From NCBI GenBank assembly GCA_003216375.1, contig QCIZ01000013.1, positions 1 through 38,910 of the forward strand: 38,910 bases of DNA, given 5' to 3'. The notes beneath the pieces were generated by a model that was given only the letters and a program-made list of their open reading frames with translations, did no database searches and was not told where the DNA came from. The position numbers and the translations under genes are program-made. Of the stretch, positions 3,355 to 7,562 are shown piece by piece (position 1 is the stretch's first letter; each line of letters opens with the position of its first letter). Source of the stretch: Prochlorococcus sp. AG-402-O21. Its GTDB lineage: Bacteria; Cyanobacteriota; Cyanobacteriia; PCC-6307; Cyanobiaceae.

Positions 3355-3711
3355 TTGGAAGTAATGGGTCAGCCTAATTCAAATTCTCAAATAGAAAAGA
3401 ACGAATCTAAGGATGGTCCAACTTTTTTTAGTATATTAATTACTACTTTTAGTACTATTTTCCTGGCTGAATTAGGAGACAAGACACAACTTGCGACATT
3501 AATGCTTTCTGCTCAGTCTGGTAGACCTCTGATTATTTTCATAGGTGCAGCACTTGCTCTTATCTCGACAAGCCTTCTTGGAGTTCTTATTGGGAGATGG
3601 ATTGCAAATAACTTACCAAGACAAAAATTTACAGTACTTTCAGGAATAATTATGTTAAGTTTGGGTTTATACCTAGTAACACAAGGTTTTTTTGACTTTA
3701 TACAAAATTAG
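3355..3711 (+). CDS. half-size UPF0016/GDT1 cation exchanger, first of a pair (Hmx-like)
   Basis: This belongs to the UPF0016 (GDT1/TMEM165/MneA/Mnx) family, which moves Mn2+ or Ca2+ across membranes. Full members have two copies of a three-helix unit, each with the motif E-x-G-D-(K/R)-(T/S). This 118-residue protein has one unit only: a hydrophilic N-terminus (residues 1-23), then helices with ELGDKTQLATLML (E39, G41, D42, K43, T44). The partner half is encoded 16 bases downstream at 3728, so the working transporter is presumably a hetero-oligomer of the two. Split genes of this kind are known in cyanobacteria as hemi manganese exchangers. The TTG start at 3355 is used here; an in-frame ATG at 3364 is as good and removes only three residues. 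Confidence 0.85.
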   Translation: MEVMGQPNSNSQIEKNESKDGPTFFSILITTFSTIFLAELGDKTQLATLMLSAQSGRPLIIFIGAALALISTSLLGVLIGRWIANNLPRQKFTVLSGIIMLSLGLYLVTQGFFDFIQN

Positions 3712-3727
3712 AATTTGAACTAATTTA

Positions 3728-4021
3728 ATGCTTATAACGCTTCTTTTTACAACTTTTTTCACTGTATTTCTAGCTGAAATGGGTGATAAAACTCAATTAA
3801 CAACAATAACTTTAAGTAGTACAACTAATAAACCACTAGCAGTATTTATTGGTTCGTCAGTAGCACTTATATTAGCTACGCTTTTAGGAGCATTAGCAGG
3901 TGGTTCTATTGCTAATCTAATCCCTGCATTCTTACTAAAACTGCTTTCTGGAATAGTATTCTTAATTTTAGGAATAAAGCTTTTAGCTGAAAGCAGAAAA
4001 GATTCTACTAGTGATAACTAG
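3728..4021 (+). CDS. half-size UPF0016/GDT1 cation exchanger, second of a pair (Hmx-like)
   Basis: This 97-residue protein is the second single-unit member of the UPF0016 family. EMGDKTQLTTITLSS (E17, G19, D20, K21, T22) is the cation-binding signature, followed by GSSVALILATLLGALAG and a third helix ending KLLAES. It aligns along its length with the preceding gene but lacks the hydrophilic N-terminal extension. Together they rebuild the two-unit architecture of Mnx-type manganese exporters. Proper Mn2+ distribution matters in an organism that must load the Mn cluster of photosystem II. Whether the ion is Mn2+ or Ca2+ cannot be read from the sequence. Confidence 0.85.
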   Translation: MLITLLFTTFFTVFLAEMGDKTQLTTITLSSTTNKPLAVFIGSSVALILATLLGALAGGSIANLIPAFLLKLLSGIVFLILGIKLLAESRKDSTSDN

Positions 4022-4104: not shown

Positions 4105-6411
4105 ATGACATCAGTTTTAAAAATACTAGAAAGTCTTGAGAGAGAGGATGGATTAGAGGTATCCAAGCTTGAAAAGTCCTTGAAACTAACAAAAAAACTT
4201 GATAGAGATAATTTACATATAGCTATTAAAGCTCTTTCAAAGCTAGGCATCGTTCAATATATAAATGATGAAAAACTTACTGTTAACAATGAACTTGGTT
4301 TCATACAAGGTAGAGTCCGATGTAGCAGTAAAGGTTTTTGCTTTGTTGTTAGAGATGATCAAGGCGAAGATATATACATTAGAGAAGCTAATTTAAACAA
4401 TGCTTGGCATGGTGATTCTGTAATTGTGTTAATCACAAAGCCCGCAGTAAAAAGGAGAGCACCAGAAGGTTCTATTCAATGTATCTTAAATAGATATAAT
4501 GATACTTTGCTAGCAAAGTTAGAGTCAAACAAATCAACAGGAGAAGTAAAGGCTTACCCGTTGGATGACAGAATATCTGTAATTATTGATTTAGATAATG
4601 ACTGTGATAATAAAAAAATAGAGCAAGAGAAAGATCTAATATATGAAATAAAAATAAGTAATTACCCAATTGCTCAATTTAATGCGAAAGGTTCAATTCT
4701 TAGAGAGTTATCAATTAATGCCGGTGTAGAAGGTGATATAGAATTATTACTTTCAAAGAATAATATTTCTAGAAATATTATTGCACCAAAAGTTGCTCCT
4801 AAAAAAATTCCTTTAAAAGGAAGAGAAGACTTAACGGCTCAACCATCATTATTATTTGAAAGTTGGGAATCGCCAAATTCTCCTTCTTTACCAGCATTAT
4901 TTGCCAAACCGAATGAAGGAGGTACAAGGATTTGGGTTCATTCTCCTACAGTTTCAGAAAGAATTAATATAGGAGGAAAATTAGATCAATTTCTTAAAGA
5001 TAGAGGTGAAGTTATCTGCTTAGGAAACAATTGGCTGGATTTTCTAAGTGAATCACTTAAATCAGCATCTCAATTTAAATTAAATGAAGTAAATGAGGCA
5101 ATTTCATTAATTATAGATATAAATAGTGATGGAAATATAACTGATTGGGAATTTACAACTAGTATTATTAGTCCAGTAAAAATAATTACACCTAAGCATC
5201 TCAAAGCTATCAACAATAGAAAATTAACATCGAAGTCTATTCCAATAGCCCTTAAACCTGTTAAGGATAATCTAGAGGTAATCTATACTATCATTCATTC
5301 AGCAAAATTAATCAATACTAACAATATAACTAGTATAAAGTTAGATGAACAGATTCCTAATTTAGAAAGATTAAGTGAGTTAAAAAAAGCATTTCCTGGT
5401 CGAGACTTTCATGGATGGACTAAGACTTATGATATTTGTGATTCACAGTCAATTCTTGATATTTATATTAGGCTTTCTAATAATATTCTAGCAAAGCATT
5501 TAATGGGATATGAATTACCTTTCATTTACAAAGAGCATGAACAAATAGATACATCTTCAATTAATGATTTAACAAAATCAGCATTAGCTTTAGACAATAA
5601 TATAAACGTTAATATAGATGGTAACGTAACAATATCTCAAGTAATAAACTCATTTGAATCAAGTAATCAAAAGAAAATATTGCACAAGCTTGTTAAACAT
5701 ATAATTCCGGGAATTCATCTAAAATTATATAAAGATAATTTTTTTGCAGAGAATAACATGGATGACAATATAAATACATCTAATATTGAATCTCCATGGT
5801 GTTGCCCAACTCTAAATTATTGGAATGTGTTTAATCAATTTATTTTAACCTCACTTTTAAATGATGGTAAAAACAAGCCTTCAAGCAGAAGTAAGGACAT
5901 TATAGAATTAGGTAAAAAAGATAGTTGGAAAGAAGTAAATTGGGATATATTTCCTTCTAAGATAGAAGAAAACATTATAACTCACTCAAATTTAAAGTTA
6001 ATTCAAAATTTAAATGAAATAAGAAAAAAATCTAAATCATTTAGAAATAATATTATTTCAATTGCTCAGTGTAGAGAAGCTCAGAGAATTATAGGAAAAG
6101 AAGTAGAAGCAATTATTACTGGAGTTCAAAGTTATGGTTTTTTTGCTGAGATAGACGAATTAACTGCGGAAGGATTAGTCCATGTGAGCACATTGGGGGA
6201 TGATTGGTATGAATATAGATCTAGACAAAATCTTTTAGTAGGAAGGAAATATAAAAAAACTTATCAACTAGCACAAAAAGTAAATGTCAAGGTTTTAAAA
6301 GTCGACATACTAAAAAATCAAATTGATTTAGAGCTTGTTAAAGACGAAGATACAGAATCAATCAAAACTAATGATATTAGTATTGACATTGACTCAGACA
6401 ATTTAACTTAA
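4105..6411 (+). CDS. RNase II/R-family (RNB) protein lacking the catalytic residues
   Basis: The 768-residue protein has the RNase II/R layout. A helical N-terminus (about 1-55) is followed by a cold-shock/OB domain (about 64-110: LGFIQGRVRC, GFCFVV, DIYIREANL, AWHGDSVIV), a second OB-like part, an RNB-like core (about 239-580) and an S1 domain (about 664-745: GKEVEAIITGVQSYGFFAEI). The core still starts with REDLTAQP and has RIWVHSPTVSERI and KLDQFLKDRGE. However, the acidic cluster that should follow (D-A-x-D-x-D-D-A in active enzymes) is replaced by WESPNSPSLPAL (254-265), IADVS is SPTVS, and the RRYPD element is PTLNYWN (568-574). Hydrolysis is therefore unlikely, and an RNA-binding or regulatory role is inferred. 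It may correspond to the Zam-type RNB proteins of cyanobacteria. ATG at 4105 is preferred over TTG at 4099. The stop abuts the ubiX ATG. Confidence 0.8.
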   Translation: MTSVLKILESLEREDGLEVSKLEKSLKLTKKLDRDNLHIAIKALSKLGIVQYINDEKLTVNNELGFIQGRVRCSSKGFCFVVRDDQGEDIYIREANLNNAWHGDSVIVLITKPAVKRRAPEGSIQCILNRYNDTLLAKLESNKSTGEVKAYPLDDRISVIIDLDNDCDNKKIEQEKDLIYEIKISNYPIAQFNAKGSILRELSINAGVEGDIELLLSKNNISRNIIAPKVAPKKIPLKGREDLTAQPSLLFESWESPNSPSLPALFAKPNEGGTRIWVHSPTVSERINIGGKLDQFLKDRGEVICLGNNWLDFLSESLKSASQFKLNEVNEAISLIIDINSDGNITDWEFTTSIISPVKIITPKHLKAINNRKLTSKSIPIALKPVKDNLEVIYTIIHSAKLINTNNITSIKLDEQIPNLERLSELKKAFPGRDFHGWTKTYDICDSQSILDIYIRLSNNILAKHLMGYELPFIYKEHEQIDTSSINDLTKSALALDNNINVNIDGNVTISQVINSFESSNQKKILHKLVKHIIPGIHLKLYKDNFFAENNMDDNINTSNIESPWCCPTLNYWNVFNQFILTSLLNDGKNKPSSRSKDIIELGKKDSWKEVNWDIFPSKIEENIITHSNLKLIQNLNEIRKKSKSFRNNIISIAQCREAQRIIGKEVEAIITGVQSYGFFAEIDELTAEGLVHVSTLGDDWYEYRSRQNLLVGRKYKKTYQLAQKVNVKVLKVDILKNQIDLELVKDEDTESIKTNDISIDIDSDNLT

Positions 6412-7020
6412 ATGTCTAGTATTGTATTAGCAATTACAGGTGCATCGGCTCTTCAATTAGGTGAGCGATCAATTCAAGTATTATTAGAAAACTGTCGATC
6501 TGTAGATTTAATTCTGAGTAAAGGTGCATATGAAGTAGCGAAAAGCGAAAGAAATATTAATATTCCAGTTGAACCAAAAGCTCAAGCTGATTATTGGAGA
6601 ACTAAACTTGGAGTCAAATCAGGTAAATTAACTTGCTATAGATGGAATGATCATTCAGCCTCAATTGCCAGCGGAAGTCACAAAACAAGGGGTATGGTAA
6701 TTGTTCCATGCTCAATGGGAACATTGGGTCGAATAGCCTCTGGTTTTTCTTTAGACCTAATTGAAAGATGTGCCGATGTTCACTTAAAGGAAAACAGACC
6801 TTTAATTATTTCCCCTAGGGAATCTCCATTAAATTTAATACATATAGAGAACATAAAACGTTTAGCAACTGCTGGTGCATTAATTGTTCCGCCCATACCT
6901 GCCTGGTATACAAACCCTCAAACAATTGAAGATATTATTGATTTTATAGTAGTTAGATTATTTGATTCTCTTGGTGAGGATTTAAATTATATTAAAAGAT
7001 GGGAAGGCCCTGATAAATGA
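6412..7020 (+). CDS. ubiX: UbiX/Pad1-family flavin prenyltransferase
   Basis: UbiX joins dimethylallyl phosphate to reduced FMN to make the prenylated flavin needed by UbiD-type decarboxylases, here probably for plastoquinone synthesis. Recognisable parts are VLAITGAS at the N-terminus, GMVIVPCSMGTLGRIASG, CADVHLKENRPLIISPRESPLN, and the C-terminal AGALIVPPIPAWYTNPQTIEDIIDF. The length of 202 residues is normal. The phosphate loop reads GASA rather than the common GASG, and the usual tyrosine just after it is absent, a modest divergence. The ATG follows the upstream RNB stop with no gap, and the end overlaps the next gene by 4 bases, so the three are translationally linked. No ubiD is in the window. 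Confidence 0.88.
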   Translation: MSSIVLAITGASALQLGERSIQVLLENCRSVDLILSKGAYEVAKSERNINIPVEPKAQADYWRTKLGVKSGKLTCYRWNDHSASIASGSHKTRGMVIVPCSMGTLGRIASGFSLDLIERCADVHLKENRPLIISPRESPLNLIHIENIKRLATAGALIVPPIPAWYTNPQTIEDIIDFIVVRLFDSLGEDLNYIKRWEGPDK

Positions 7021-7562
7021 AATTAAATTATTTAATAAAGATGATTCCTCTTCTATCAACATTTTCTTTAATTGCGATATTAAATTTTAGTAATCAAAAA
7101 GTGAATACTAAATTAAAAATATTAATTTGGAATACTCCATCATTAACATTAGGATCATATCTTGCAATTTCAACTGGAACAGGCTTCATATTCTCATATA
7201 TAATAACTACAAGCCTAGCAAATTCAATTAGATCAAACTCTATCAAGGGTATAAAGTATAAAAAAGAAATTAACAAAGAAGAAGCAGTAGAATACAATGA
7301 TACAAATTACAATAATTACACCGAAAATATATTAATAGAGAGAGAAATTAATGATCCAATACCTACAGTGGACGCTAGATTTAGAGTAATTGGCAAAACA
7401 GAAAGATACAACACAAATTATAAAAATGATTACAATAGTAAAAACAAGGATTTAAATGAAATAGAAGATTCATATATAGAACAGAATAAAGAAAATAATG
7501 CTTTTAACCAAGATAGAGATATTTCATCTGATTGGAATGATGATTCTTTTAAAAACTGGTAA
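7017..7562 (+). CDS. LapA-like (DUF1049) two-helix membrane protein with Asn-rich tail
   Basis: The first about 70 residues hold two membrane helices (IPLLSTFSLIAILNF and GSYLAISTGTGFIFSYI) joined by FSNQKVNTKLKILIWNTPSLTLG. This N-Q-x-V-x-(I/L)-x-(F/I)-x-x-W-x-x-P-S-L-x-L-G pattern is that of the LapA/DUF1049 domain found in lipopolysaccharide-assembly and many cyanobacterial membrane proteins. The remaining about 110 residues are a hydrophilic, charged, Asn/Tyr/Glu-rich tail that looks disordered. Its ATG overlaps the ubiX stop by 4 bases (ATGA). Its function is unknown; a cell-envelope or thylakoid scaffold role is only a guess. Confidence 0.65.
   Translation: MKLNYLIKMIPLLSTFSLIAILNFSNQKVNTKLKILIWNTPSLTLGSYLAISTGTGFIFSYIITTSLANSIRSNSIKGIKYKKEINKEEAVEYNDTNYNNYTENILIEREINDPIPTVDARFRVIGKTERYNTNYKNDYNSKNKDLNEIEDSYIEQNKENNAFNQDRDISSDWNDDSFKNW

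What the first reader, a model, noticed from the sequence alone, without database searches (positions are those of the whole stretch)
4105..6411. RNase II/R homologue that has lost its catalytic residues
The fold order (OB domain, RNB-like core, S1 domain) is kept over 768 residues, but the metal-binding acidic cluster of RNB enzymes is gone. Where D-A-x-D-x-D-D-A should follow REDLTAQP there is WESPNSPSLPAL; IADVS reads SPTVS; RRYPD is PTLNYWN. A full-length protein that keeps its RNA-binding ends while dropping catalysis suggests a pseudo-exonuclease acting as an RNA-binding regulator or a decoy. It is locked to ubiX with no intergenic bases, so its translation may be linked to prenyl-flavin supply.
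Basis: partly seen in the sequence, partly recalled or inferred. Interest (0 to 1): 0.72.

Follow-up and report, generated by a model that had tools for sequence, protein, structure and literature searches.

The report
Prochlorococcus Zam, a dead RNase homologue
The gene encodes Zam, a known cyanobacterial relative of RNA-degrading enzymes that has lost its cutting site but keeps its RNA-binding ends and a pair of redox-sensing cysteines; the loss is real but was already described, and the new points are how gradual the loss is across cyanobacteria and that the related working enzyme in this group has lost the opposite parts.

Summary
In detail: 4105-6411 encodes a 768-aa protein with a full RNase R-like fold and no RNB metal site. 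It is not new: it is an orthologue of Zam, reported in 2022 as a degenerate, probably non-nuclease RNB clade with essential redox-active cysteines C73/C79 (PMC9145284); the window protein has both. None of 225 distinct Zams has all four metal-site acids; 56 of 56 cyanobacterial Rnb do. What I add: (1) the loss is graded: 27 of 80 Zams outside Cyanobiaceae keep the three Mg-binding Asp and lack only the D207 equivalent, while most Cyanobiaceae Zams read L-P where the D-D pair stood (122 of 145); (2) in the window's genus selection is purifying in every domain, the former active loop included, except the C-terminal tail; (3) zam-ubiX linkage is old (73/76 and 45/76 loci), so it is no special sign of a prenyl-flavin link; (4) in the window's clade, which holds three of four Prochlorococcus-titled records, the catalytic paralogue Rnb lacks the N-terminal half that should carry the cold-shock domains. 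Most likely Zam is a redox-switched, non-catalytic regulator of RNA turnover, perhaps through RNase E (inferred).

The parts
4105..6411 (+). zam: non-catalytic RNase II/R (RNB) family protein, 768 aa
   Evidence: match to this protein in 78 of 91 family genomes, 58 of 59 near-complete
4291..4494 (+). CSD1 (about residues 63-130), second most conserved domain
   Evidence: OB_RNB Pfam hit 69-125; 14 of 39 invariant columns of 54 Zams (split by domain by hand); pN/pS 0.14
4321..4341 (+). stretch from the C73 codon to the C79 codon, the redox pair of Zam
   Evidence: sequence; CC in 139 of 145 Cyanobiaceae and 77 of 80 other Zams; function from PMC9145284
4846..4899 (+). former metal-site loop SLLFESWESPNSPSLPAL (residues 248-265), without D201/D207/D209/D210
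4822..5862 (+). RNB core fold (residues 240-586)
   Evidence: Pfam PF00773 1.9e-31; model fold match
5806..5826 (+). PTLNYWN in place of the PIRRYPD stretch; R500 equivalent lost
6091..6333 (+). S1 domain (residues 663-743), most conserved part
   Evidence: Pfam S1; 21 of 39 invariant columns of 54 Zams (by hand); pN/pS 0.09
6412..7020 (+). ubiX (UbiX-family flavin prenyltransferase), starts directly after the zam stop
   Evidence: TIGR00421 6e-53, 179.3 bits, cut-off 108.9; linkage
7017..7562 (+). 181-aa ORF of unknown function overlapping the ubiX stop by 4 bases
   Evidence: hit in 18 of 70 Cyanobiaceae loci with room
3355..4021 (+). two ORFs resembling half-size Gdt1/UPF0016 membrane proteins upstream of zam (name recalled, from no call)
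   Evidence: ORFs; each query hits upstream of zam in 75 of 75 Cyanobiaceae loci, but the two are alike and in L208 both hit one stretch

Best explanation
The gene is an orthologue of Zam in a Prochlorococcus-like genome. SHOWN here: RNase R-like fold (model), no metal-site acids, CSD1, S1 and the C73/C79 pair retained, purifying selection, presence in nearly all near-complete genomes of the family. INFERRED from published work on Synechococcus PCC 7002 Zam: the C73-C79 pair in the RNA-contacting loop of CSD1 switches with cell redox state. INFERRED, least certain: by binding RNA and/or RNase E through CSD1 and S1, Zam adjusts RNA turnover without cutting RNA itself, the RNB core remaining as a scaffold. 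Prochlorococcus lacks phycobilisomes (established knowledge), so the phycocyanin phenotype of other strains is unlikely to be the basic function; a general role in RNA turnover fits better.
For: Match in 78 of 91 family genomes, 58 of 59 near-complete; C73/C79 as in Zam; zam-ubiX order. 0 of 225 Zams have four metal acids against 56 of 56 Rnb. 35 of 39 invariant columns of 54 Zams lie in CSD1 and S1 and one in the RNB core; in 35 Rnb all 30 lie in the RNB core (truncated rows in that set cannot show invariant N-terminal columns). pN/pS: S1 0.09, CSD1 0.14, CSD2 region 0.34, RNB core 0.27, old active loop 0.23, C-terminal tail 0.88. RNase E is present in the genome. Literature: PMC9145284; review PMC10989914 on RNase II-RNase E binding in Anabaena (passages and one section).
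Against: Purified Zam showed neither RNA binding nor nuclease activity in PMC9145284 (aggregation-prone; data not shown). The RNase E partner in Anabaena is Alr1240, which the review describes as RNase II-like and active on unstructured RNA; PMC9145284 calls the RNase E-binding Anabaena protein Zam. I could not settle this: the primary paper (DOI recalled) is not held and no named Anabaena sequence was fetched. I found no experiment on a Prochlorococcus Zam in the searches made. Synonymous sites are near saturation, so pN/pS is only indicative.
Confidence: 0.72

Rival explanations
1. Ssd1-like RNA-binding regulator: Zam binds specific mRNAs on the outer face of its cold-shock domains and alters their translation or stability without RNase E.
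For: Fold match to the pseudonuclease Ssd1 (7am1, Z 29.2); CSD1 loop residues R72, K76, F78, F80 present, R72/K76/F80 invariant in 54 Zams; in Ssd1 the CSD outer surface binds RNA (PMC8934651, passages).
Against: Z is lower than for RNase R; no RNA binding seen for purified PCC 7002 Zam (PMC9145284); S1 is even more conserved than CSD1, which the Ssd1 model does not explain.
Confidence: 0.3
2. Trans-acting lid: the catalytic Rnb of this clade, which lacks its N-terminal domains, works with Zam, which supplies cold-shock domains, so that the two form one split exoribonuclease.
For: Short Rnb lacks about 250 N-terminal residues (median 38 vs 287 aa before TID), no OB_RNB/CSD2 Pfam hit in 3 of 3 tested, one group of 23 genomes with support 99 on the Zam tree; zam and rnb lie 15-20 kb apart in the 14 short-Rnb genomes tabulated.
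Against: Long cyanobacterial Rnb also has no OB_RNB hit (2 of 2). The RNase II of D. radiodurans (2r7d), the closest fold to short Rnb (Z 42.3, tied with RNase R chains), is also a short chain. Zam has lost its metal site also where Rnb is long. zam and rnb are 22-31 kb apart in 4 long-Rnb genomes too, so the distance may be shared gene order. No interface evidence.
Confidence: 0.1
3. Residual or non-canonical nuclease: the replaced loop forms another catalytic site.
For: The loop is conserved in Cyanobiaceae (L at D209 in 132, P at D210 in 128 of 145; LPA in 112). 27 of 80 other Zams keep three Mg-binding Asp.
Against: No conserved acid at the four metal positions in Cyanobiaceae; Y313 and R500 equivalents mostly lost too.
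Confidence: 0.04
4. zam is coupled to ubiX function (prenyl-FMN supply).
For: Old linkage: 73 of 76 and 45 of 76.
Against: 31 of 76 non-Cyanobiaceae loci and 3 of 76 Cyanobiaceae loci gave no ubiX hit downstream; spacing varies; no phenotype in the papers read points to prenyl-FMN.
Confidence: 0.05
5. Decaying pseudogene.
For: Catalytic residues lost.
Against: Long open frames in most matched genomes (a few rows carry one stop, among them G057 and G374); purifying selection.
Confidence: 0.01

Closest known systems
Zam of Synechococcus PCC 7002 / Synechocystis PCC 6803 (PMC9145284)
   Same: Domain order, degenerate metal site, C73 and C79 at the same numbers, coexists with a catalytic Rnb.
   Different: Compared through the paper only; no named PCC 7002 or 6803 sequence was fetched. 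In Cyanobiaceae D207, D209, D210, Y313 and R500 are replaced in nearly all; the window's clade has a short Rnb.
RNase R (E. coli 5xgu, B. subtilis 8cdu, M. genitalium 7dic)
   Same: Whole fold, Z 33.4-34.9 over 600-611 residues.
   Different: Catalytic residues absent; NCBIfam RNase_R 184.8 bits, far under the 597.85 cut-off.
Yeast Ssd1 / S. pombe Sts5 pseudonucleases (PMC8934651, PMC8097288, passages only)
   Same: RNB fold with lost active site, conserved CSDs, repeated loss of the active-site signature.
   Different: Derived from Dis3L2; no redox cysteine pair in the passages read; Ssd1 has loops that block the channel.
Cyanobacterial Rnb / RNase II
   Same: RNB family, same genomes.
   Different: Keeps all four acids (56 of 56); conservation lies in the RNB core.

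Membership tests
Zam (cyanobacterial RNB clade) | RNB family with two CSD, RNB and S1 domains | tested here: met
   OB_RNB, RNB, S1 by Pfam; the second CSD only from the model and its RNase R match
Zam (cyanobacterial RNB clade) | Degenerate metal site | tested here: met
Zam (cyanobacterial RNB clade) | Cysteine pair C73/C79 in the CSD1 loop | tested here: met
   sequence
Zam (cyanobacterial RNB clade) | Groups with Zam and apart from Rnb | tested here: inconclusive
   The two classes separate by blastp and by active site, but no named PCC 7002 or 6803 Zam was fetched and the tree held no cyanobacterial Rnb
Zam (cyanobacterial RNB clade) | Redox activity; acetazolamide and pigment phenotype of the deletion | not testable with these tools
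   needs experiments
RNase R / RNase II (active RNB exonucleases) | Four acidic residues DxxxxxDxDD | tested here: not met
RNase R / RNase II (active RNB exonucleases) | NCBIfam RNase_R equivalog cut-off | tested here: not met
   184.8 of 597.85 bits
Ssd1 pseudonucleases | Descent from Dis3L2 | not tested
   no eukaryotic sequences were put in a tree; only the fold is shared

The most novel reading that the evidence does not exclude
In the Prochlorococcus clade the RNase II/R machine has been split: a lidless catalytic Rnb (RNB plus S1-like C-terminus) and a dead Zam that keeps the cold-shock lids, S1 and the redox switch act together, so that RNA is handed to the catalyst by a redox-gated pseudo-subunit.
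Probability: 0.08. Interest if true: 0.7.

Novelty: new member of a known kind. Interest (0 to 1): 0.33.

Why it matters
It places a published cyanobacterial pseudonuclease in a Prochlorococcus-like genome; as Prochlorococcus lacks phycobilisomes, this argues that Zam's basic role is in RNA metabolism and not in phycocyanin control. The graded series (three Asp kept, E/N-type sites, L-P loop) gives natural variants to test when activity was lost. The truncation of the catalytic RNB enzyme in the same clade makes a split-function hypothesis directly testable.

Tried and rejected
Loss of Rnb in this genome: one RNB hit and no hit with a sister Rnb (that call warns that an empty answer alone shows nothing), but the gene next to rnb in a sister (metG by recall) gives only weak hits (best E 5e-9), so an assembly gap is more likely than gene loss. 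Decaying pseudogene: rejected. Prenyl-flavin coupling: linkage real but unspecific. Metal site rescued by realignment: rejected by two alignment methods. Identity of Anabaena Alr1240 (Zam or Rnb): unresolved. Novelty in print: PMC9145284 came up in the listings (not in 25 or 70, which asked about other things); in it the words Prochlorococcus, ubiX, operon, truncat and Gloeobacter do not occur. In the listings I saw no paper on a short Prochlorococcus Rnb; this covers only the held library and the rows shown (12 of 44 and 12 of 143).

Results against my reading: 7 of 80 non-Cyanobiaceae Zams have E at the D207 column, where loop lengths make the alignment unsure; 3 of 80 and 6 of 145 Zams lack one or both cysteines; E542 is not diagnostic (E in 16 of 56 Rnb, T in E. 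coli RNase R) (all). Long Rnb have no OB_RNB hit either (2 of 2). One record titled Prochlorococcus (L196) sits with G110, whose Rnb frame is long, outside the short-Rnb group. The motif regex missed 9 of 40 Rnb, all long; the alignment then found the acids in all. Rows dropped: 241 Zam sequences became 225 after removing identical or contained ones, 58 Rnb became 56 (two partial); the tree used 83 of 225 Zams (61 of 80 and 22 of 145), quick method, with long branches; the tree used 40 genomes, chosen among those for which both a Zam locus and an Rnb frame length were at hand, plus the window.

Full report
CHECK. The ORF 4105-6411 (+) encodes 768 aa with an ATG start that fits its relatives. 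Pfam finds OB_RNB (69-125), RNB (240-586) and S1 (663-743); the CSD2 model hits the same first OB domain (81-133), so the second cold-shock domain rests on the structure model. Aligned to E. coli RNase II and RNase R, D201/D207/D209/D210 read E/gap/L/P, and Y313 and R500 are gone as well. Profile-profile alignment agrees on the loop. The structure model (pLDDT 87.3, pTM 0.86, 54 sequences) matches RNase R chains best (Foldseek E 2.3e-42 to 4.0e-41 for 8cdu, 5xgu, 7dic; Z 33.4-34.9 for these three). Yeast Ssd1 is also matched (Z 29.2).

WHAT IT IS. Full-text search led to PMC9145284 (abstract, introduction, methods, results 3.1-3.7, discussion and legends read), which describes Zam: an RNB clade in every cyanobacterial genome they searched, degenerate active site, conservation in the OB domains, and redox-active C73 and C79, each needed in vivo; deletion lowers phycocyanin synthesis and raises PSI:PSII. 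The window protein has C73 and C79 at these very numbers. So the headline of the finding is already known. That paper does not mention Prochlorococcus or ubiX.

WHICH ORGANISM. On a Zam tree it falls within a clade that holds three records titled Prochlorococcus (L214, L216, L221); a fourth so titled (L196) lies in the sister group. The genome has 1.76 Mb in 43 contigs. I therefore write Prochlorococcus as an inference.

SURVEY. With the window protein as query, 78 of 91 genomes of the family have a match, 58 of 59 near-complete ones. With a Zam from another genus of the family (L097), 55 of 117 phylum genomes match; 49 are of the family or class, and the six others have E-values of 3e-10 or weaker. 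With a Zam from another family (L114), 214 of 214 class genomes match at E <= 0.001, but this tally includes hits to Rnb: the two f50 genomes, G435 and G391 appear to have Rnb only. Of 225 distinct Zams none has four metal acids; of 56 Rnb all have. Outside Cyanobiaceae (80) the number of acids is 3 in 28, 2 in 27, 1 in 18 and 0 in 7; 27 keep Asp at D201, D209 and D210 and lack only D207, all 27 with Y313, R500 and E542. In Cyanobiaceae (145) it is 0 in 94 and 1 in 51, and D209-D210 read L-P in 122. According to PMC8097288 (passages) D201, D209 and D210 are thought to hold Mg2+ and the second Asp contacts the 3' end. On a quick tree of 83 Zams the acid-count groups need 14 changes (shuffled mean 34.8). 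The simplest reading is one early loss of D207 followed by repeated erosion, with the L-P loop fixed once in Cyanobiaceae. The tree has long branches and its root is unsure.

SELECTION. Among 23 sequences of the window's genus, pN/pS is 0.09 (S1), 0.14 (CSD1), 0.27 (RNB core), 0.23 (old active loop), 0.30 (N-terminus), 0.34 (CSD2 region) and 0.88 (C-terminal tail); synonymous sites are near saturation. In 54 Zams 35 of 39 invariant columns fall in CSD1 and S1 and one in the RNB core (split by domain counted by hand). In 35 Rnb all 30 fall in the RNB core.

NEIGHBOURHOOD. Gene order in named Cyanobiaceae loci with room: a Gdt1-like gene upstream 75 of 75 (both queries hit, but they are alike and in L208 hit one stretch), ubiX 73 of 76, DUF2996 gene 65 of 68, tldD (name recalled) 61 of 65, recJ 65 of 70. 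Outside the family a ubiX hit follows zam in 45 of 76 and a Gdt1-like hit precedes it in 0 of 74 (flanks of about 1.5 kb, E <= 1e-3). Linkage to ubiX is old, but linkage alone does not show shared function.

THE OTHER RNB PROTEIN. In 33 of 41 genomes of the genus there is a second RNB with a frame of 425-454 aa; in the ten fetched, TID...[DE]xDDA and RRYxD are intact. Three short Rnb tested give only the RNB domain in Pfam. Compared with long Rnb it lacks about 250 N-terminal residues (38 vs 287 before TID, medians; 128 vs 126 after RRY; 19 short rows, one a partial fragment, and 39 long). In L002 a 73-aa frame (ribosomal protein S18 by recall) overlaps or abuts its start, so the missing half is not encoded just before it there. 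On the Zam tree 23 short-Rnb genomes form one group, support 99. The model of short Rnb (pLDDT 91.7) is closest to the D. radiodurans RNase II (Z 42.3), tied with RNase R chains (Z 41.3-41.8). The window's own genome lacks rnb most likely because the assembly lacks that region.

MECHANISM. Shown: dead metal site, intact fold in the model, conserved CSD1/S1 and cysteines, selection. Inferred: redox-switched regulation of RNA turnover, perhaps through RNase E, which is present here. The review PMC10989914 reports that Anabaena Alr1240 binds RNase E and enhances its activity, and describes Alr1240 as RNase II-like; PMC9145284 calls the RNase E-binding Anabaena protein Zam. These do not sit easily together and I could not resolve it. 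That a Prochlorococcus-like genome, from a lineage without phycobilisomes (established knowledge), keeps Zam under selection argues for a basic role other than phycocyanin control.

VERDICT. Observation confirmed, interpretation partly supported, a new member of a known kind. Interest 0.33, mostly for the graded loss and for the opposite losses in Zam and Rnb.

Noticed in passing
L002:1354-2691 and the rnb genes of L003-L011, L014-L016, L018, L024, L027, L028, L036: Catalytic Rnb of the window's clade lacks about 250 N-terminal residues, where the cold-shock domains should be; one group on the Zam tree.
   Followed up: yes
L114, L128, L226-L246, L251, L252, L254, L271: 27 Zams outside Cyanobiaceae keep the three Mg-binding Asp and lack only the D207 equivalent; possible residual nucleases.
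   Followed up: partly
G463, G471 (family f50), G435, G391: Cyanobacterial genomes of the same class in which only an Rnb-type RNB protein was found, so apparently no Zam.
   Followed up: partly
L208, L217, L220: Zam loci without ubiX downstream although there is room; L220 is titled Candidatus Synechococcus spongiarum, L208 Aphanocapsa feldmannii, L217 Prochlorococcaceae cyanobacterium.
   Followed up: no
window 3355-4021: Two adjacent ORFs resembling half-size Gdt1/UPF0016 membrane proteins (name recalled); a Gdt1-like hit lies upstream of zam in 75 of 75 Cyanobiaceae loci and in 0 of 74 other cyanobacterial loci.
   Followed up: partly
window 7017-7562: 181-aa ORF without a significant family match overlapping the ubiX stop (ATGA); hit in 18 of 70 Cyanobiaceae loci.
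   Followed up: no
G001-G007, G043, G050, G057, G071, G079, G092, G097, G100, G110, G114, G127: rnb and zam lie 15-31 kb apart in these 18 genomes, but over 190 kb apart on linear coordinates in G049, G063, G101, G103 and G122 (a hand-picked 23).
   Followed up: no
L196 and L050 (G110): A record titled Prochlorococcus sp. AG-412-I05 has a Zam close to that of G110, whose Rnb frame is long (706), outside the short-Rnb group.
   Followed up: no
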